A DNA stretch of 64,000 nucleotides from positions 62,001-126,000 of the forward strand of contig JAIYDP010000116.1 in the NCBI GenBank assembly GCA_027487435.1, given 5' to 3'. Below the pieces are notes generated by a model, which searched no databases, was not told the DNA's origin, and saw only the letters and a program-made list of their open reading frames with translations. Position numbers and translations under genes: made by a program. Origin of the DNA: Verrucomicrobiaceae bacterium (GTDB taxonomy: Bacteria; Verrucomicrobiota; Verrucomicrobiia; Verrucomicrobiales; Akkermansiaceae). Below are positions 7,308 to 21,164 of this stretch, one piece after another; positions within the stretch are counted from its first letter, which is position 1; each line of letters begins with the position of its first letter.

Positions 7308-8708
7308 ATGAAATTCCTCTCTCTTTATCTCGTTACGCTCGCTGCTCAAACCTTCAGCATCTCCGCTGAAGTCGTCGCCGTCAAACAACAGAACTTCTCC
7401 CAGAAAACTAGCTTTAGTGCTACATTGCTACCTGCTAAGGCACATCTTATTTCCGTGGATTCTGAAGCCTGGCAAAGCTTCGTCATCGAGGAAATCGTCC
7501 CGCACGGCACACTCGTCCGCAAAGGCGAAGCCTTGATTCGCTTCGATGCGGAAGACTATCAGAAAAAAGTCCAAGACGCAGAATCAGCCCACGAAGCCAG
7601 CAAACTCACCCTCGCGAATGCCGAGGCTGACTACGCCGCCGCCGTCAAATACCAGCCCATGCAGATGGAAAGCGCTCGAATGAAAAAAGAGCACGCTGCC
7701 GAGGCATGGCACTACTTTCAAAAAACCTCTCGCGAAGCCAAAACCCGCGAAGCGAACCTCCAGCTCCGCTCCAGCGAACTTCGCCTCGATTCCGAGCGCG
7801 AAGAGCTCAAGCAGTTGGAAAAAATGTATAAGGCTGACGACCTCACGGAAAACACCGAAGAAATCATTCTCAAACGTCAGCACGAGGCAGTAAAATTCGC
7901 CGAAGCTGCTCTGGAAGATGCTCGCCTCGAGCACAAGCGCACACTGGAAATCCAGCTCCCCCGCCTCGCCGTATCCCTTGAGCGCGAAGCACAGAGCTCT
8001 GCTATTGCCTTCCAAGAAAACGAAGAAAGCATCCCACGCAATCTCAAGCTCAAGCACATCGCCCTCGAGGATGCCCGCGTCAAAGCCAAGCGCGATCAAG
8101 AAAGCCTTCGAAAACTCACGGACGCTCGTCCCGAATTTGTGATCAAAGCCCCAGTAGCTGGATATTTTTACTATGGCACCATACAAGAGGGACGCTGGAA
8201 CATCGCCGAAAGCACTAAAGCTCTTGGCCCAAAAAGTCCAGTCCCGGTCAATCGCCCCTTCGCCACTTTGATTCCCACCAAAGGAATCATGAATGCCGAG
8301 GCCTTTGTCGATGAGCCAAGCATGCGCCAGCTCAGAGTCAGCCAAAAAGGCTACGCTAACTTGGTAGGCCTAGAGCACATCGCCCTTCCTGCTCAAGTCG
8401 AGCGCATTGCGCCCACGCCGACACTCGATGGCCGCTATCGCGTCACCTTGGATCTCAAGGCTAGCGATCTCAAAAATGTTGCCCCCGCAGCCAATGTCAA
8501 AATTACCATCGTCTCCTACCAGAAAAACGACGCCCTCACCGTTCCTGCCAAAGCCCTCCACGCCACCGACTCGGGCGATTGGGAAGTTGAGCTGAAGCAA
8601 GAAGGCAAAGACAACGTGCGTGTCTCCGTCACCCGTGGCATCATTAGTGGCGACGATGTCGAAATTCTCAGTGGCTTGAGCAAAGGACAGCAAGTCATCG
8701 TCCCATAA
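7308..8708 (+). CDS. HlyD-type periplasmic adaptor subunit
   Basis: Signal peptide MKFLSLYLVTLAAQTFSISAE; coiled coil; barrel-sandwich halves (IVPHGTLVRKGEALIRFD ... FVIKAPVAGYFYYG). Confidence 0.75.
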   Translation: MKFLSLYLVTLAAQTFSISAEVVAVKQQNFSQKTSFSATLLPAKAHLISVDSEAWQSFVIEEIVPHGTLVRKGEALIRFDAEDYQKKVQDAESAHEASKLTLANAEADYAAAVKYQPMQMESARMKKEHAAEAWHYFQKTSREAKTREANLQLRSSELRLDSEREELKQLEKMYKADDLTENTEEIILKRQHEAVKFAEAALEDARLEHKRTLEIQLPRLAVSLEREAQSSAIAFQENEESIPRNLKLKHIALEDARVKAKRDQESLRKLTDARPEFVIKAPVAGYFYYGTIQEGRWNIAESTKALGPKSPVPVNRPFATLIPTKGIMNAEAFVDEPSMRQLRVSQKGYANLVGLEHIALPAQVERIAPTPTLDGRYRVTLDLKASDLKNVAPAANVKITIVSYQKNDALTVPAKALHATDSGDWEVELKQEGKDNVRVSVTRGIISGDDVEILSGLSKGQQVIVP

Positions 8709-11392: not shown

Positions 11393-13000
11393 TCATCCGC
11401 GCACCTGCTCAAATTTCACCCCAAATTTCGCCAGATATTTTTTCAGTCGATCCGCATCATTCGCGACTGCACGCTTTTCTCGCGATACCGCAAATAGCTT
11501 TCGGCCTGCATCGGAAATGCTTACGCTATCTCGGCAAACCCCCAGCACGTAAACCAACTGCGCTCGATCAAATGGATCTATCGCCGCGATGTCTTCCTCG
11601 TTCAAAATGTTTGTTAGATCATACTCGCTCGCGGGCAATTCTGACTCAGGCCGCTGCCACGATTGTTCGAGGCGTGTCATTTCCTCCTTCACATCTGCCG
11701 TGGTGATGCGGCCACGCGCGGCCAGAGTTGCCATCCGTGTGATCGCTGCATTTAAGTCGCGAAAATTCCCCAGCCATGCGGTAGTGGGCAAAAGCGCAAA
11801 ATGCAAAAATGCCTCTCGCGCCTCCTTGTTGAAGCTCACCGACCGACCATATTTTTCTGCGTAGCGCAGCAATTCATAATCAAGGTTCGGCTTGATGTCC
11901 TCCCTCCGTTGCGCCAGCGATGGTAACGTGAATGACCATAGATGGATTCGCGCCAAAAGGTCTTCGCGGAATTTTCCCTCGGCCACATCGCGCCGCAAAT
12001 CCCGATTGGTCCCGGCGATCAATTGAAAATCACTTTTCACCATCGCATCCGAACCAACGGGAAAGAAAATCTTATCTTCTAACGCTCGCAACAACATCGC
12101 CTGCTCATCCAAGCCTAACTCGCCGATCTCATCCAAAAAAAGCAAGCCACCATGGGCCTCGCGCAGGAGCCCAGGTCGGTCTTTTTGCGCGCCTGTGAAG
12201 CTGCCTCTCACATGGCCAAATAGTGTCGATGCCGCCAAATCACCCCGCAGCGTCGCGCAGTTTACTTCTACAAAATTTCCACGCAACCCTCCTCGCTGCT
12301 GCCGTAGTTCATAAATGCGCCGCGCCAACTGTGATTTGCCAGCACCCGTTGGTCCGCTCAACAATATCGGCTCCTTGGAGCGTAGAGCCACTTGCTCGAT
12401 GCGCCCGATCATCGTGTTAAATGCAGCATTTTTCGTCTTGATGCCACTCTTGAGAAAATCGGCGTCTTCTTTTGCCTGCTCTTCGAAGCGGGTACTAAGC
12501 TTATCGTATTTCGAGAGGTCCAGATCGATCACGTCGTAGCGCGCCTTTGAGCCTTTCGCGCGTTTCCCGCCCAGCGGCGGGCTGGATTGAATCAACTTTG
12601 CTGGTAAAAATCCCGCCTCCGTCAACAAGAACAAACAGATCTGCGCCACGTGCGTGCCCGTGGTGATGTGAACAAAGTATTCTTCCTTCTCGGTATCGAA
12701 TTGATATCCTTTCGCCCAATCGTATAAGGTACCATAGACCTTTTCGAAATCCCACGGATCGCCACCAAAATCAACCAAGTGCTGAACCACTTCACTCTCG
12801 GGAGAAACCTGCATGGCATCTCGTGCCGTTTGTAGCGCCGTATTGTGAAACGGTTGCTCATGGAGCAAGTCTAGTCGTCCGACGCACAGATCATCATGCT
12901 GAAACAATGACACCGTTGGACGCCAGGCATCCCAGCGATCTTCGCCACGCCCACGCCAATCCAACTGCGTACCCAATAATCCAATGATGACCTTTTTCAT
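11393..13000 (-). CDS. rtcR: RtcR-type sigma54-dependent activator (CARF-like N-terminus, AAA+)
   Basis: MKKVIIGLLGTQLDWRGRGEDRW N-terminus; Walker A GPTGAGKS; GSFTGA sigma54 loop; LLFLDEIGEL; neighbourhood rsr/rtcB/rtcA. Confidence 0.92.
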   Translation of the reverse strand: MKKVIIGLLGTQLDWRGRGEDRWDAWRPTVSLFQHDDLCVGRLDLLHEQPFHNTALQTARDAMQVSPESEVVQHLVDFGGDPWDFEKVYGTLYDWAKGYQFDTEKEEYFVHITTGTHVAQICLFLLTEAGFLPAKLIQSSPPLGGKRAKGSKARYDVIDLDLSKYDKLSTRFEEQAKEDADFLKSGIKTKNAAFNTMIGRIEQVALRSKEPILLSGPTGAGKSQLARRIYELRQQRGGLRGNFVEVNCATLRGDLAASTLFGHVRGSFTGAQKDRPGLLREAHGGLLFLDEIGELGLDEQAMLLRALEDKIFFPVGSDAMVKSDFQLIAGTNRDLRRDVAEGKFREDLLARIHLWSFTLPSLAQRREDIKPNLDYELLRYAEKYGRSVSFNKEAREAFLHFALLPTTAWLGNFRDLNAAITRMATLAARGRITTADVKEEMTRLEQSWQRPESELPASEYDLTNILNEEDIAAIDPFDRAQLVYVLGVCRDSVSISDAGRKLFAVSREKRAVANDADRLKKYLAKFGVKFEQVRG

Positions 13001-13004
13001 GGCT

Positions 13005-13397
13005 TCAATATCCCATCAATTTCAGTCCCGCCACCCGAGAAAAGTCCTGTACATTTCGCGTTACCAAGGGAACATCATGTTCTATCGCCGTTGCTGCGAT
13101 CCATAAATCATTGGCCCCCATGATGTTTCGGCTCAATCGTAATTTACGCGTGATTCTCGCATAGCAACGCGCCGTTGCTTCGGTGGATGGAACCTTTTGG
13201 AAGTGCTGCAACATCGCCTGACAGGCTGGCGACTCAACATCATCAAATCCCTCGATGAATTCCCCCACCGTCACCGCTGAGATGAGCGGAATCATTGCGC
13301 AATGTTGCTTGAGAAAAGCCATGGCAGCCCCCACGCCTTTTTTCTTTTCGCGCTCGAGATCAATCAGAAAGCACGTATCAAACAACATCGAATTCAT
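13005..13397 (-). CDS. VapC-like PIN toxin
   Basis: MNSMLFDTCFLIDLERE ... SAVTVGEFIEGF ... GANDLWIAATAIEHDVPLVTRNVQDFSRVAGL. Confidence 0.85.
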   Translation of the reverse strand: MNSMLFDTCFLIDLEREKKKGVGAAMAFLKQHCAMIPLISAVTVGEFIEGFDDVESPACQAMLQHFQKVPSTEATARCYARITRKLRLSRNIMGANDLWIAATAIEHDVPLVTRNVQDFSRVAGLKLMGY

Positions 13398-13633
13398 GAC
13401 CATGGATCATCGGGTGCTGCATCTTCACGTTGCGCCTTTTCCCAATAGCGCAAGGTCTTTTCATCCTCCGCAGGCATCAATGCCAAAGCTTCCAGCAAGT
13501 CACCGCAGGTGGGCGCGATTGCGTCCCATTTGGCTCTTTTGATCACCTGAGAAAAAGAATCTTTCTCGGTGCGTCGCGCTCGTTTTAGCACCTCATACGC
13601 CTCGATATCGATCGATATTGTTTTCGTTGCCAT
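13394..13633 (-). CDS. VapB-like antitoxin
   Basis: MATKTISIDIEAYEVLKRARRTEKDSFSQVIKRAKW; ATGA overlap with the vapC start. Confidence 0.75.
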   Translation of the reverse strand: MATKTISIDIEAYEVLKRARRTEKDSFSQVIKRAKWDAIAPTCGDLLEALALMPAEDEKTLRYWEKAQREDAAPDDPWS

Positions 13634-13848
13634 GCATGCAGCATACACAGACATGATGGCCCGTCAATATTATTTTCCGTATCCACAAAAAATTCGATCA
13701 AGTATATCGCATGATAGATAAATAACTAGCGAAAAAGATAAACCAGCGATAAATAAATTTCTCTGGAAATTATCCAGAAAAAATATTTCATCAAAATTTC
13801 CCTTATAACATCGATGTTTCTAAAGATTTTTCCCCTCAATAGCAAAAC

Positions 13849-13865
13849 TTGGCACGCTGCATGCC
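13849..13865 (+). promoter_or_regulatory. Sigma54 (-24/-12) promoter for the rsr/Y RNA/rtcB transcript
   Basis: TTGGCACGCTGCATGCC: GG at 13851-52 and GC at 13863-64 with 10-nt spacing, matching TGGCACG-N4-TTGC at nearly every position; divergent from vapBC-rtcR. Confidence 0.85.
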
Positions 13866-13893: not shown

Positions 13894-15462
13894 ATGAACA
13901 AATCACTCTTCTCAACTCTCCGCTCGTTCGTGCGGTCTCCGGATTCGACAAACGATGCTGGCGCCCCGGCCTACCAGCTTTCCCCCGAAGCTGCTCTTGC
14001 TCAGCTCGCCTGCACTGGTTGCCTTTCGCAAACGTTTTACGCCACTGCCGAAACTCAACTGGATCGCGTATTGCAACTTGCTCGTCAAGTGGACACAGAT
14101 TTCCTTGCTCGCACGGCCCTGTATTCGCGTCAGGTCGCTCACATGAAGGACATGCCTGCCTTGCTCTGCGCCGTGCTCGCTTCGCGGAATCTTGATCGCT
14201 TGAACGATGTTTTCCCTCAGGTCATCAACAATGCTCGGCTCTTGCGGAACTTCGTGCAAGCCATTCGCTCAGGAGTGACCGGTCGGAAATCTCTCGGTAG
14301 CGCACCCCGCCGTTTGGTTCGTCAATGGCTCGACCTCGCCGATGACGAAACCTTGCTCGCTGCGACCATTGGCAATGACCCCTCCCTTGCCGACGTGATT
14401 AAAATTGTTCACCCTCGTCCACGTTGTCCACGCCGTGAAGCGTTCTACGCTTGGATCATCGGCAAACCACACGATCCCGCGTTGCTGCCTGACATCGTGC
14501 AGGAGTTTGAAGCATGGAAAGCAGATCGCACCCGGCCATTGCCACGTGTTCCGTTTCGTTTGCTTACCGCGCAGCCACTCACCACGGAGCAATGGACAGA
14601 AATCGCTCGCCATGCCAACTGGACGACCACACGGATGAACCTGAACACCTTTGCCCGCCATGGGGTTTTGAAAAATACCGAAGTCGTCAACGTTCTCGCA
14701 AAACGATTGTCCGATGCCGCATTGGTGCGCAAAGCCAAAGTCTTTCCGTATCAACTTCTCGCCGCCTTCCTCAATGTCTCGAACGACATCCCACAAGTGC
14801 TCTCACTCGCTTTGCAGGATGCGCTCGAAGTTGCCACGGAGCAGGTTCCAGCCTTGCAAGGAAATGTTTTTGTCGCCATCGATATTTCCGGCTCCATGCA
14901 AAGCCCCGTCACCGGGGAGCAACAAGGCCGTAGCTCTAAGGTTCGTTGTCTGGATGTTGCCGCACTCATCGGTGCCGCGATCGTCCGCAAAAATCCGTTA
15001 GCCACGATCATCCCGTTCCACGAAGTTGCCACGCAAGCATCATTGAACCCGCGCGATTCCGTGCTGACCAATGCGCGTATGCTCGCCAACTTGCCTTCTG
15101 GTGGCACCGATTGCAGTGCTCCCTTGCGGTGGATCAATCAGATGAATGCCTCGCCCTCCTTGGTGATCATCGTTTCGGATAACGAGTCCTGGTGCCATGT
15201 CCATAATCGTCAATCGACGCCGGTTATGCGCGAGTGGAGTAAAATCAAAGCACGTCAGCCCGATGCCAAACTGGTGTGCATGGATCTTGCTCCCAATACC
15301 ACCACACAAGCTCCGGATCGTGCCGATATCCTTAACATCGGTGGATTTAGCGATGAAGTCTTCACCCTCGTGAAAAACTTCGCCGATAGCAACTCGGATC
15401 CCGATCATTGGCTGCAACGTATCAATCAACAAGTGCTGCGCGCTACCCTGCGCATCGCATAA
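13894..15462 (+). CDS. rsr: Ro60/Rsr (TROVE-HEAT ring plus vWA MIDAS) Y RNA-binding protein
   Basis: vWA MIDAS FVAIDISGSMQ, SGGTDCSAPL, IIVSDNESW; TROVE-like N-terminus. ATG at 13894 is preferred over the TTG at 13849, which lies inside the sigma54 element. Confidence 0.92.
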   Translation: MNKSLFSTLRSFVRSPDSTNDAGAPAYQLSPEAALAQLACTGCLSQTFYATAETQLDRVLQLARQVDTDFLARTALYSRQVAHMKDMPALLCAVLASRNLDRLNDVFPQVINNARLLRNFVQAIRSGVTGRKSLGSAPRRLVRQWLDLADDETLLAATIGNDPSLADVIKIVHPRPRCPRREAFYAWIIGKPHDPALLPDIVQEFEAWKADRTRPLPRVPFRLLTAQPLTTEQWTEIARHANWTTTRMNLNTFARHGVLKNTEVVNVLAKRLSDAALVRKAKVFPYQLLAAFLNVSNDIPQVLSLALQDALEVATEQVPALQGNVFVAIDISGSMQSPVTGEQQGRSSKVRCLDVAALIGAAIVRKNPLATIIPFHEVATQASLNPRDSVLTNARMLANLPSGGTDCSAPLRWINQMNASPSLVIIVSDNESWCHVHNRQSTPVMREWSKIKARQPDAKLVCMDLAPNTTTQAPDRADILNIGGFSDEVFTLVKNFADSNSDPDHWLQRINQQVLRATLRIA

Positions 15463-15515: not shown

Positions 15516-15638
15516 TTTCGATGAATGCCTTCATGACTCCATTGGTCGTCGGTTCGAGTCCGACCCTGCTCCCCCAGCAGGTAGCTCAGTTGGTAGAGCA
15601 GTAGTAAAAAAGCGTCATGACAAACTTTGTCATCGGAA
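15516..15638 (+). ncRNA. Y RNA-like 1 (YrlA type, permuted tRNA mimic)
   Basis: Terminal stem TTTCGATGA/TCATCGGAA; inner stem TCATGAC/GTCATGA; T-arm GTCGG-TTCGAGT-CCGAC (15548-15564); closed acceptor CCTGCT-CCCCC-AGCAGG; D-arm GCTC-AGTTGGTA-GAGC (15584-15599). Confidence 0.85.
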
Positions 15639-15659
15639 TCTTTATCTGATCCACACTTT

Positions 15660-15785
15660 TGCCGAATGCAGGGTGAAACTACATCACTACAAATTGACCA
15701 GGTTGCGGGTTCGAGTCCCGCCGGAGATTTTTACTCCGTAGTTCAACTGGATAGAACAGGATTGTTTCCCCATCCCTTGTCGGCA
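15660..15785 (+). ncRNA. Y RNA-like 2 (YrlA type, permuted tRNA mimic)
   Basis: Terminal stem TGCCGA/TCGGCA; GGTGAAAC/GTTTCCCC; T-arm GCGGG-TTCGAGT-CCCGC (15705-15721); closed acceptor CGGAG-ATTTTTA-CTCCG; D-arm GTTC-AACTGGATA-GAAC (15741-15757); followed by T8. Confidence 0.85.
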
Positions 15786-15807
15786 TTTTTTTTAACATAT
15801 TCCTTTT

Positions 15808-15917
15808 TCGATGAATGCACCAATGTTTCCATTTGTTGCCGGTTCGATTCCGGCCAGGCGAGAGCCTGTAGCTCAAATGGTAGAGCCATGCATCACATTG
15901 ATTCCCCTTGTCATAGA
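15808..15917 (+). ncRNA. Y RNA-like 3 (YrlA type, permuted tRNA mimic)
   Basis: Terminal stem TCGATGA/TCATAGA (one mismatch); CAATGT/ACATTG; T-arm GCCGG-TTCGATT-CCGGC (15838-15854); acceptor CAGGC-GAGA-GCCTG (GNRA loop); D-arm GCTC-AAATGGTA-GAGC (15871-15886). Confidence 0.82.
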
Positions 15918-15939
15918 TTCCCAATCACAAAATCATTCG

Positions 15940-16006
15940 TTGCCGAATGCCAGGTGAAACTACATTTATGATATGTTCAACCGTTTCACTCAATCCTTGT
16001 CGGCAA
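15940..16006 (+). ncRNA. Y RNA-like 4 (minimal, no tRNA module)
   Basis: Terminal stem TTGCCGA/TCGGCAA; inner stem GTGAAAC/GTTTCAC; 22-nt loop; same CGAATGC and CCTTGTCGG motifs as its neighbours. Confidence 0.75.
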
Positions 16007-16025
16007 TCTAACTTCTAACAAAAAA

Positions 16026-16161
16026 TCACGAATGCACGCGATAAATCCATCAAACTAGAGACGTCGGTTCGAATCCGACCCAACGAACACTGATCAATTC
16101 AGAATCGTTGGTGGAGCAATGGTAGCTCGGTAGCATGTATCATCGCACAACCTTGTCGTGA
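16026..16161 (+). ncRNA. Y RNA-like 5 (YrlA type, permuted tRNA mimic)
   Basis: Terminal stem TCACGA/TCGTGA; GCGAT/ATCGC; T-arm GTCGG-TTCGAAT-CCGAC (16063-16079); 7-bp acceptor CCAACGA/TCGTTGG closed by an 18-nt loop; D-arm GAGC-AATGGTA-GCTC (16114-16128). Confidence 0.82.
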
Positions 16162-16214
16162 ATTTCCTTAAACCATCCTAACTCTGCCCACACCTCTTAC
16201 CACTCAACACTATT

Positions 16215-17693
16215 ATGATCCATAAAACATCCGAGGCCTTTGGCTTCATCCCTACACGAAAAAGCGATGGCAAGCCCATCACCGTCATCGGCACAGACAA
16301 GATCCGCGATGGCTTTGACGAAACCTGCCTCGCCCAAGCACTTAATTCGCGAGAAGCTCCCGGCGTTTCCGATCTGATTCTCAATCCCGATGCCCACGCT
16401 GGTTACGGAGCTCCCGTTGGCTGCGTGATGGTCTCGCCGACTCACATCTATCCAGGGCCCGTCGGCGTGGACATCAAGTGCTCCATGTCGCTGCTTCAGC
16501 TCGATGTGCCCGAGGATGCCATCGCCGATAAAACGATACGCCGTGCCCTCATCAATGCCATTTGCGAACGCACCCCGACCGGTGCCGGACGTGGCCAACG
16601 CTCCGCAAAAAAATCTCGCCACGTGGGAATCGATCTCGGACGCAAAGTCATCACCCAAGGCGCGACAGCCGATGTGTTAGAAGCACTCGGTATCCCCGTG
16701 GAGTGGGCGGAGCGATGCGAAGACCACGCCCACTTCGGACACGATGGCTGTGTTTCCACCCTGCAAGAGCGTCTCGATCGCATGGAAAAATCCGGCTACC
16801 ATGATCGCTTGCCGAACAAGATCATGCAGCTCGGTTCCTACGGCGGTGGCAACCATTTCGGCGAAGCCGAGATTGTGGAAATCAACAACACGCCCGAGGC
16901 CCGTAGCGCTGCGGAAGTCTTCGGTTTGAAAAACAATCACGTCGCCTTTCTCAGCCATTGCGGTTCACGAGGACTCGGACATGACCTCGCGTCGAATCAA
17001 TTCAAGGCGCTCGAAAAACACTTCCAGGCCTGGCACTTGCCCTATCCTTCCGGCGATCGTCAACTCGTCTATGCACCGCTCGGTTCGCCCGAGGGCAATG
17101 CCTACCTCGATGACATGGCGATGGGATCGAACTTCGCGACCGTGAACCACATGTTGATCAATGCCCTAGTGCTCGAAGCCTTCCAGGAAATCTTGCCCGG
17201 AACGCAAGGAAAGCTCGTGTATTTCATCAGCCACAACATCGCCCGCGAAGAGATTGTGGACAACCGTCCGCAGTGGGTTCACCGCAAGGGGGCAACCCGT
17301 GCGTTTCCCGCTGGTCACCATGCCCTCAAGGATACGCCGTTTGCGAACACCGGCCACCCGATCCTGTTGCCCGGAAATCCGCGCGATGGCTCCCTCGTCA
17401 TGGCCGCGCTGCCGGGTGCGGAAAAATCATGCTATTCGGTCAACCACGGAGCCGGACGACAAATGGGGCGCAAGCATGCGATCCGCACCCTCGATCAAGG
17501 CGAAGTGGACAAGGACTTCGATGCCCAGGACATCCTTACCAACTGCCGAACCTATCCAAAAGACGAAGCTCCCGATGCCTACAAGGATTTCAACGAAGTC
17601 CGCAACAGCGTCGAACTCGCAGGCCTTGCCCACACCGTGGCGAAACTCCGCGCCCGCTTCGTAATCAAGGATGCGGATAAGGCAGATGATTGA
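16215..17693 (+). CDS. rtcB: RtcB RNA ligase
   Basis: NPDAHAGYGAPVGCVMVS, GVDIKCSM, GGGNHFGEAE, HCGSRGLGHDLA, HRKGATRAFPAG, VNHGAGRQMGR. Confidence 0.95.
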   Translation: MIHKTSEAFGFIPTRKSDGKPITVIGTDKIRDGFDETCLAQALNSREAPGVSDLILNPDAHAGYGAPVGCVMVSPTHIYPGPVGVDIKCSMSLLQLDVPEDAIADKTIRRALINAICERTPTGAGRGQRSAKKSRHVGIDLGRKVITQGATADVLEALGIPVEWAERCEDHAHFGHDGCVSTLQERLDRMEKSGYHDRLPNKIMQLGSYGGGNHFGEAEIVEINNTPEARSAAEVFGLKNNHVAFLSHCGSRGLGHDLASNQFKALEKHFQAWHLPYPSGDRQLVYAPLGSPEGNAYLDDMAMGSNFATVNHMLINALVLEAFQEILPGTQGKLVYFISHNIAREEIVDNRPQWVHRKGATRAFPAGHHALKDTPFANTGHPILLPGNPRDGSLVMAALPGAEKSCYSVNHGAGRQMGRKHAIRTLDQGEVDKDFDAQDILTNCRTYPKDEAPDAYKDFNEVRNSVELAGLAHTVAKLRARFVIKDADKADD

Positions 17694-20138: not shown

Positions 20139-21164
20139 ATGAAAACCATTTCCGGCATTAACGGCGGAGGCCAAATCCTCCGCACAGCACTGACGCTCTC
20201 GATGATCACCGGGCAGGCATTTCGCATGAATCACATTCGAGCGAAACGCCGCAAGCCTGGCTTAATGCGGCAGCACCTCACCTGCGTTAAAGCAGCGGCC
20301 AGCATTTGCCATGCGCGCATCGAAGGTGCAGAAATCGGCAGCACCGAACTCACGTTCATCCCGGGCACCATCACGTCTGGAGATTACCATTTCGCCATCG
20401 GCAGTGCTGGCAGCACGACCTTACTCGCGCAAACCCTCCTGCCCGCACTGTGGCACGCCGATGCGCCTAGCACACTAACCCTCGAAGGTGGCACGCACAA
20501 TCCACTTGCGCCCTCGCAAGCATTTCTCGATCAAGTGACCCTCGCCACCTTGCGTAAGATCGGCATCCATGTCAGTTGCCAGCTCCTCGAATACGGCTTC
20601 GCTCCCGCAGGCGGAGGGAAGATTGTTTTGGAAATTACTCCAGCGAAAGAAGTTAAGCCGCTGCATTTGTTAGAACGAGGGGCGCAACACTCCTTGGACA
20701 TTGAAGTCACTGCCCGTAACATCGACTGGACGATTGCCGAGCGTATGATCGCGACCGCCGCCGCGATATTTCCGCATGCCAATATTATTCGCAATTGCTT
20801 GAAAGAAGGTCCTGGCCATGGCATCACATGTCAGGTTCGCGCGAACTTCGAGCACAGTACGGAAATGTTCAGCATCTGTGGCGAGATCGGACTTTCCGCC
20901 GAGGCCGTAGCCAAACGTGCGGCGAATGGCATGAAACATTTTCTCAGCAGCGGCGCCGCCGTTCACCATCACCATGCCGACCAATTATTGCTTCCGCTTG
21001 CCCTGCATCGTGGAGGAACCTTCCTCACCCTACCGCCCGACGAGCACTTTCTCACCAATAGTGCCACCCTTCAAGCCTTCTTGCCCGATCTCCTCATCGA
21101 CATCAAGAAACAAGAAAAATCTCCCCTCCATGAAATCAGCATAAAACATTGTTTTGGTAGTTGA
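20139..21164 (+). CDS. rtcA: RtcA RNA 3'-terminal phosphate cyclase
   Basis: INGGGQILRTALTLSMITGQAFRM, GSAGSTTLLAQTLLP, GGTHNPLAPS, GPGHGITCQV, HHHHADQLLLPLAL. Confidence 0.95.
   Translation: MKTISGINGGGQILRTALTLSMITGQAFRMNHIRAKRRKPGLMRQHLTCVKAAASICHARIEGAEIGSTELTFIPGTITSGDYHFAIGSAGSTTLLAQTLLPALWHADAPSTLTLEGGTHNPLAPSQAFLDQVTLATLRKIGIHVSCQLLEYGFAPAGGGKIVLEITPAKEVKPLHLLERGAQHSLDIEVTARNIDWTIAERMIATAAAIFPHANIIRNCLKEGPGHGITCQVRANFEHSTEMFSICGEIGLSAEAVAKRAANGMKHFLSSGAAVHHHHADQLLLPLALHRGGTFLTLPPDEHFLTNSATLQAFLPDLLIDIKKQEKSPLHEISIKHCFGS

What the first reader, a model, noticed from the sequence alone, without database searches (positions are those of the whole stretch)
15516..16161. Five-member tandem Y-RNA-like array between rsr and rtcB, four with circularly permuted tRNA mimics
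Seen directly: five units spaced about 20 nt apart. Each is bounded by complementary ends (TTTCGATGA/TCATCGGAA; TGCCGA/TCGGCA; TCGATGA/TCATAGA; TTGCCGA/TCGGCAA; TCACGA/TCGTGA), with 5' CGA(A)TGC and 3' (C)TTGTC motifs. In units 1, 2, 3 and 5 a T-arm (TTCGANT loop) precedes a D-arm (GG in the loop). They are joined by an acceptor-like stem closed by a loop, so there is no free CCA end. Established: bacterial YrlA Y RNAs in rsr-rtcBA loci mimic tRNA with a closed acceptor end and bind Ro60. Inference: this is an expanded, diversified YrlA family that could give one Ro60 several adaptors. A set this large and varied in one transcript looks unusual, and none of it is in the ORF track.
Basis: partly seen in the sequence, partly recalled or inferred. 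Interest (0 to 1): 0.95.

Follow-up and report, generated by a model that had tools for sequence, protein, structure and literature searches.

The report
Ro60 RNA array mimicking several tRNAs
An uncultured bacterium carries, inside its RNA-repair gene cluster, five small RNA genes of the kind that bind the Ro60 ring protein; four look like rearranged transfer RNAs, and one copies part of the special transfer RNA that starts proteins, which suggests that these RNAs imitate particular transfer RNAs and not just transfer RNAs in general.

Summary
Between rsr (Ro60) and rtcB lie five Y RNA units (15516-16165). Units 1, 2, 3 and 5 match Rfam YrlA (69.8, 67.4, 63.8, 40.5 bits). Unit 4 is a short Y RNA without a tRNA-like domain. 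When de-permuted, the four are called tRNAs by ARAGORN (0/100 shuffles each), and 17 of 23 pairs show compensatory changes in 48 units.

The claim that such an array is unusual fails: 61 of 76 homologous rsr loci from many phyla carry three to seven units. The units are old paralogues: 273 of 294 have their best match in another genome.

What looks new is isotype-specific mimicry. Unit 5 has an initiator-tRNA D-arm, with the A11:U24 pair that class I elongators lack. The pair is kept in all nine aligned members, with a compensated change beside it. A pattern search of 387 genomes found nine such units, all in rsr loci. Related arrays add tRNA-Leu-like units with a class II variable arm, D-less units, and units opened in the D-loop that keep an anticodon-like arm.

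Best reading: one RtcR/sigma-54-induced transcript gives Ro60 several tRNA-mimic adaptors. Function is inferred; expression and Ro60 binding were not testable.

The parts
11393..13000 (-). rtcR, sigma-54 activator with CARF-like sensor domain
   Evidence: Pfam RtcR 3.4e-75 and Sigma54_activat 5.5e-49
13850..13864 (+). Sigma-54 (-24/-12) promoter-like site TGGCACGCTGCATGC, shortly before rsr
   Evidence: Pattern; a similar site lies within 400 nt upstream of rsr in 24 of 63 homologous loci, background 0.009 per 400 nt
13894..15462 (+). rsr, Ro60 orthologue (522 aa)
   Evidence: Pfam vWA_Ro60 1.4e-21, TROVE 6.5e-5; 87% identical in the nearest relative
15516..15638 (+). Y RNA unit 1, YrlA type, elongator-type D-arm
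   Evidence: Rfam RF02553 69.8 bits, above the gathering score; D-arm stretch identical (20/20) to host tRNA-Thr(UGU); 90% identical orthologue in L005/L034
15660..15785 (+). Y RNA unit 2, YrlA type
   Evidence: RF02553 67.4 bits; absent from the nearest relative; best match in Haloferula luteola L037
15808..15920 (+). Y RNA unit 3, YrlA type
   Evidence: RF02553 63.8 bits
15939..16007 (+). Y RNA unit 4, short, no tRNA-like domain
   Evidence: No Rfam match; same end stem and 5'/3' motifs; folds with z -2.7; 81% identical orthologue in L005/L034
16022..16165 (+). Y RNA unit 5, YrlA type with initiator-tRNA D-arm
   Evidence: RF02553 40.5 bits; A11:U24 and TGGAGC..GGTAGCTCG; best host match is initiator tRNA-Met; nine-member alignment with covariation
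16063..16079 (+). U5 T-arm (GTCGG-TTCGAAT-CCGAC)
   Evidence: Sequence
16080..16111 (+). U5 acceptor-like stem CCAACGA/TCGTTGG closed by an 18-nt loop
   Evidence: Sequence
16112..16129 (+). U5 initiator-type positions 8-26: T8 G9, D-stem GAGC/GCTC, G26
   Evidence: Pattern search
16215..17693 (+). rtcB RNA ligase
   Evidence: Pfam RtcB 5.4e-101
20139..21164 (+). rtcA RNA 3'-phosphate cyclase
   Evidence: Pfam RTC 3.3e-73

Best explanation
This is a five-member Y RNA cassette of an RtcR-controlled RNA-repair operon. Shown by sequence: all five share the terminal stem and motifs of bacterial Y RNAs; four carry a tRNA elbow that corresponds to a tRNA opened at its anticodon arm with its acceptor end closed; one of these has the D-arm of initiator tRNA. 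Inferred: broken tRNAs activate RtcR, sigma-54 transcription runs through rsr, the array and rtcB, and the units are cut out of that transcript. Each unit binds Ro60 (Rsr) by its common lower stem. The variable upper module presents a different tRNA-like face, so one Ro60 can be tethered to different tRNA-handling proteins (PNPase, modification enzymes, nucleases), with the short U4 serving as a plain gate or tether. The retained initiator features suggest that at least some modules imitate a particular tRNA and not tRNAs in general.
For: Rfam YrlA matches. Covariation in 17 of 23 pairs over 48 units. De-permuted units called tRNA, 0/100 shuffles. Operon proteins and a conserved sigma-54 site, 24/63 loci against 0.009 expected per locus. 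No promoter or terminator excess on the + strand inside the array. U5 class: A11:U24 in nine of nine aligned members, one member with a compensated 12:23 change, covariation score 0.342 against 0.167 shuffled. A pattern search of 387 genomes found nine Y units, all near rsr. Module types are old: only 21 of 294 units have their best match in their own locus. Orthologues of U1, U4 and U5 in the nearest relative. Published: RtcR is activated by 5' tRNA halves (PMC7790460); Rsr-Y RNA-PNPase complex, and DusA/TruB action on YrlA (PMC8394870).
Against: No expression, processing or Ro60-binding data for this genome. Acceptor stems do not match the acceptor of the tRNA suggested by the D-arm, and there is no anticodon, so mimicry of one isotype is partial. 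The tRNA-like faces could be interchangeable. U2 and U3 are missing in the nearest relative, so not every member is essential.
Confidence: 0.55

Rival explanations
1. Decoys: the tRNA-like modules compete for anticodon nucleases or other tRNA-attacking enzymes that trigger the operon. Lacking a cleavable anticodon arm, they protect tRNAs of several kinds. Ro60 stabilises them.
For: Hughes et al. propose that YrlA could be a competitive inhibitor of the nuclease, and found that it is not cut (PMC7790460). The mix of elongator, initiator and Leu-like faces fits a panel.
Against: Anticodon nucleases usually need the anticodon arm (general knowledge), which the window's units lack. No nuclease is conserved beside the locus: vapBC is present in one relative only and in another position.
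Confidence: 0.22
2. Dosage and drift: any tRNA elbow on a Y stem works, several copies simply raise the Y RNA amount, and the isotype traits are leftovers of tRNA gene capture.
For: Most units with a parsed D-arm have the generic GCTC/GAGC stem (156 of 192); copy number varies between close relatives.
Against: The A11:U24 pair is kept with a compensated neighbour. Class II variable arms are kept in 5 of 6 Leu-like units. Units are 54-62% identical within the window, yet types persist between genera.
Confidence: 0.2
3. Untranslated spacer with tRNA gene remnants, not Y RNAs.
For: D- and T-arm sequences resemble host tRNAs.
Against: T precedes D, the acceptor is closed, the Y-specific stem and motifs are present, Rfam YrlA matches, and there is strong covariation.
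Confidence: 0.01

Closest known systems
YrlA / Y RNA-like (Rfam RF02553), e.g. Salmonella yrlBA
   Same: Lower stem, AUGC and UUGUC motifs, T-arm, closed acceptor stem, D-arm; next to rsr and rtcBA under RtcR.
   Different: Five units instead of two; U5 has an initiator-type D-arm and scores 28 bits below the gathering score.
Short Y RNAs without a tRNA-like module (Salmonella YrlB, from own knowledge)
   Same: U4: same end stem and motifs as the array's other units, simple upper hairpin.
   Different: No direct comparison with YrlB was made here.
Bacterial initiator tRNA-fMet
   Same: U5 positions 8-26: U8 G9, GAGC/GCUC with A11:U24, G26. A real initiator tRNA of the Akkermansia-like genus g3 (L169) has an 18-nt D-arm stretch identical to that of the Y unit in L176.
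   Different: Permuted, no CCA end, no anticodon arm, unrelated acceptor sequence.

Membership tests
YrlA (RF02553) | Covariance-model match | tested here: met
   U1 69.8 bits (cut-off 69); U2 67.4, U3 63.8, U5 40.5, below the cut-off but E 4e-15 to 2e-7; U4 no match, so U4 is not filed as YrlA
YrlA (RF02553) | T-arm, closed acceptor, D-arm order with covarying stems | tested here: met
   17 of 23 pairs with double changes; U1, U2, U3, U5 parsed
YrlA (RF02553) | Gene next to a Ro60/Rsr gene | tested here: met
   rsr ends at 15462, U1 starts at 15516
YrlA (RF02553) | Binds Ro60/Rsr in the cell | not testable with these tools
   Needs pull-down or CLIP
RtcR-controlled RNA-repair operon | rtcR divergent to rsr, rtcB and rtcA, with a sigma-54 site | tested here: met
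Initiator-type tRNA mimic (D-arm) | Purine 11 : pyrimidine 24 in the D-stem | tested here: met
   A:U in nine of nine aligned members
Initiator tRNA proper | C1 x A72 mismatch and three G:C pairs in the anticodon stem | tested here: not met
   U5 acceptor is fully paired and it has no anticodon arm; it imitates the D-arm only and is not an initiator tRNA

The most novel reading that the evidence does not exclude
Bacterial Y RNA arrays are panels of isotype-specific tRNA mimics. Ro60-binding stems have been grafted into different tRNAs (elongator, initiator, class II Leu with its variable arm, Ser-like) and at different points (anticodon arm or D-loop), so that each RNA targets Ro60 to, or shields, a particular tRNA-handling step.
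Probability: 0.33. Interest if true: 0.82.

Novelty: new variant of a known kind. Interest (0 to 1): 0.58.

Why it matters
What bacterial Y RNAs do beyond tethering Ro60 to PNPase is open. If their upper modules copy particular tRNAs, the partners can be guessed from the copied tRNA and tested one by one. The operon is switched on by broken tRNAs, so initiator- or Leu-type mimics would link sensing, repair and Ro60 in a testable way. The results also show that Rfam's YrlA model, at its gathering score, misses three of the four tRNA-like members here and some whole types elsewhere.

Tried and rejected
VapBC beside rtcR as a partner: found near the locus in only one relative and in another position, so treated as a passenger. 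Recent tandem duplication: rejected. Direct recent copying of host tRNA-Leu into Leu-like units: the variable-arm pattern matched only the Y array itself. Alignment A3 held a wrong L007 unit and was replaced by A4. The pattern TGGAGCARNGGYAGCTCG also hit coding DNA, other non-Y sequence and one real fMet; those were set aside. The key papers (Chen 2014, Sim and Wolin 2018, Wang 2018, Sim 2020) could not be read in the held library, so what they say on array size or isotype is unchecked. The tail of the initiator-type D-arm comparison is not clean: L034 u3 ties with host Tyr, and its assignment rests on A11:U24 and orthology with U5.

Full report
What is there. The window lies in a Verrucomicrobiales metagenome-assembled genome (G000, contig C447). 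Its nearest relative, with Rsr 87% identical, is G009, held also as L034, a Verrucomicrobiae bacterium assembly. The locus is a standard RtcR-controlled RNA-repair operon: rtcR on the minus strand, then rsr, rtcB and rtcA on the plus strand. A sigma-54 -24/-12-like site TGGCACGCTGCATGC lies shortly before rsr; a similar site precedes rsr in 24 of 63 homologous loci, against 0.009 expected per locus.

The five units. Rfam YrlA matches U1, U2, U3 and U5 (69.8, 67.4, 63.8, 40.5 bits; gathering score 69), so only U1 is found at the default setting. U4 has the same end stem and motifs but only a simple upper hairpin. ARAGORN reports no ordinary tRNA. If each tRNA-like unit is cut at the acceptor loop and the Ro stem is replaced by a generic anticodon arm, ARAGORN calls a tRNA in nearly all variants and in 0 of 100 shuffles for each unit. 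A MAFFT alignment of 48 canonical units from many phyla gives 23 consensus pairs, 17 of them with double compensatory changes.

Is it unusual? No. A scan of species genomes with an Rsr alignment returned 80 named loci from Verrucomicrobiota, Planctomycetota, Acidobacteriota, Proteobacteria, Myxococcota and others. In the 76 with enough downstream DNA, the number of Y units within 1.5 kb of rsr is 0 (3 loci), 1 (2), 2 (10), 3 (25), 4 (18), 5 (9), 6 (6), 7 (3); background 0.016. The sample is biased towards Rsr proteins similar to this one, and the detector is my own motif-and-stem heuristic. Rfam counts alone understate array size.

Are the units copies of each other? Not recent ones. The tRNA-like units of the window are 54-62% identical to each other, while U1, U4 and U5 are 90, 81 and 75% identical to units in the nearest relative, which lacks U2 and U3. 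Over 294 units in multi-unit loci, only 21 have their best match in the same locus. The types are old and maintained, with gain and loss.

Unit 5 is of initiator type. Its D-arm reads U8 G9 GAGC AAUGGUA GCUC G26. Class I elongator tRNAs have a pyrimidine 11 and purine 24; initiators have A11:U24 (established knowledge; in the host tRNAs listed, the initiator is the only class I tRNA with it). Against 28 host tRNAs U5 scores best with initiator Met (24, next 15); of seven other members with the same D-arm type, all have the initiator as best match, and the L034 orthologue ties with it. In nine aligned members A11:U24 never changes, pair 12:23 is G:C in eight and C:G in one (a double change, in L034), and the covariation score exceeds all 500 shuffles and all slid controls (the shuffles do not account for relatedness). 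A pattern search over 387 genomes of the order returned 21 hits; nine are Y units beside rsr in three genera, the window's own among them. The rest are coding DNA, other non-Y sequence and one real fMet whose D-arm stretch equals that of the Y unit in L176. The acceptor stem of U5 is fully paired and unrelated to that of fMet, so only the D-arm is copied.

Other mimic types in related arrays. Six units from relatives in the same family have a tRNA-Leu-like D-arm (GGCGGAAT.GGUAGACGC); five of them also have a class II variable-arm hairpin just before the T-arm, with different stems (folds, where the minimum-energy fold keeps the variable hairpin but not always the T-arm). Some units have T-arm and acceptor hairpin but no D-arm (L006, L014, L020; folds). 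Seven candidate units in other phyla are opened in the D-loop and keep an anticodon-like arm; closing the circle makes ARAGORN call a tRNA for five of seven and for none of 280 shuffles (folds). Rfam YrlA finds only one of the four of these that were scanned, at 37 bits. I know of no description of these types, but the main reviews could not be read.

How it probably works. Published work shows that RtcR is activated by 5' tRNA halves with cyclic phosphate (PMC7790460), that in Deinococcus a Y RNA tethers Rsr to PNPase, and that YrlA is a substrate of DusA and TruB (PMC8394870). From the shared lower stem and the varied upper modules I infer several Ro60 adaptors from one induced transcript. 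The decoy model is the main rival. Both predict that single units have distinct partners; the drift model predicts that they do not.

Verdict. The new part is the evidence that individual Y RNAs copy features of particular tRNAs.

Noticed in passing
L112:8475-8604; L090:8048-8172 and 8182-8308; L082:8113-8254; L048:4416-4552; L088:7636-7782; L076:7788-7902: Y RNA units opened in the D-loop instead of the anticodon arm, keeping an anticodon-like arm. Five of these seven are called tRNA after circle closure (0/280 shuffles), and Rfam YrlA misses three of the four scanned.
   Followed up: partly
L010:685-819(-), L012:839-971(-), L039:4128-4269, L177:2585-2732, L009:3534-3664, L172:653-776(-): Leu-like Y RNA units; all but L172 have a class II variable-arm hairpin before the T-arm.
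   Followed up: partly
L006:3347-3438, L014:3331-3421, L020:3333-3422: Y RNA units with T-arm and acceptor hairpin but no D-arm.
   Followed up: partly
L030:3709-3837: Y RNA unit with a Ser-like D-arm (GGCCGAGTGGTCAAAAGC); best host match is tRNA-Ser(GCU).
   Followed up: partly
L032 and L033, beside distant Rsr homologues (26-30% identity): Arrays of T-then-D tRNA-like elements on the other side of a divergent rsr, with a different end stem; perhaps a separate Y RNA family.
   Followed up: no
13005-13654 (-): vapBC toxin-antitoxin pair between rtcR and rsr; found near the locus in only one relative, at another position.
   Followed up: yes
15786-15793: Run of T directly after U2; no + strand terminator was scored there, but the U2 end stem could act as one.
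   Followed up: no
G000 whole genome: 9.39 Mb at 82% completeness while kin in the genus are about 3-4 Mb; some tRNA genes lack an encoded CCA, so the assembly may hold foreign (perhaps eukaryotic) contigs.
   Followed up: no
L048 4416-5940, L060 4876-5556, L106 5648-5870: Y units lie upstream of rsr, so the array is not always downstream.
   Followed up: no
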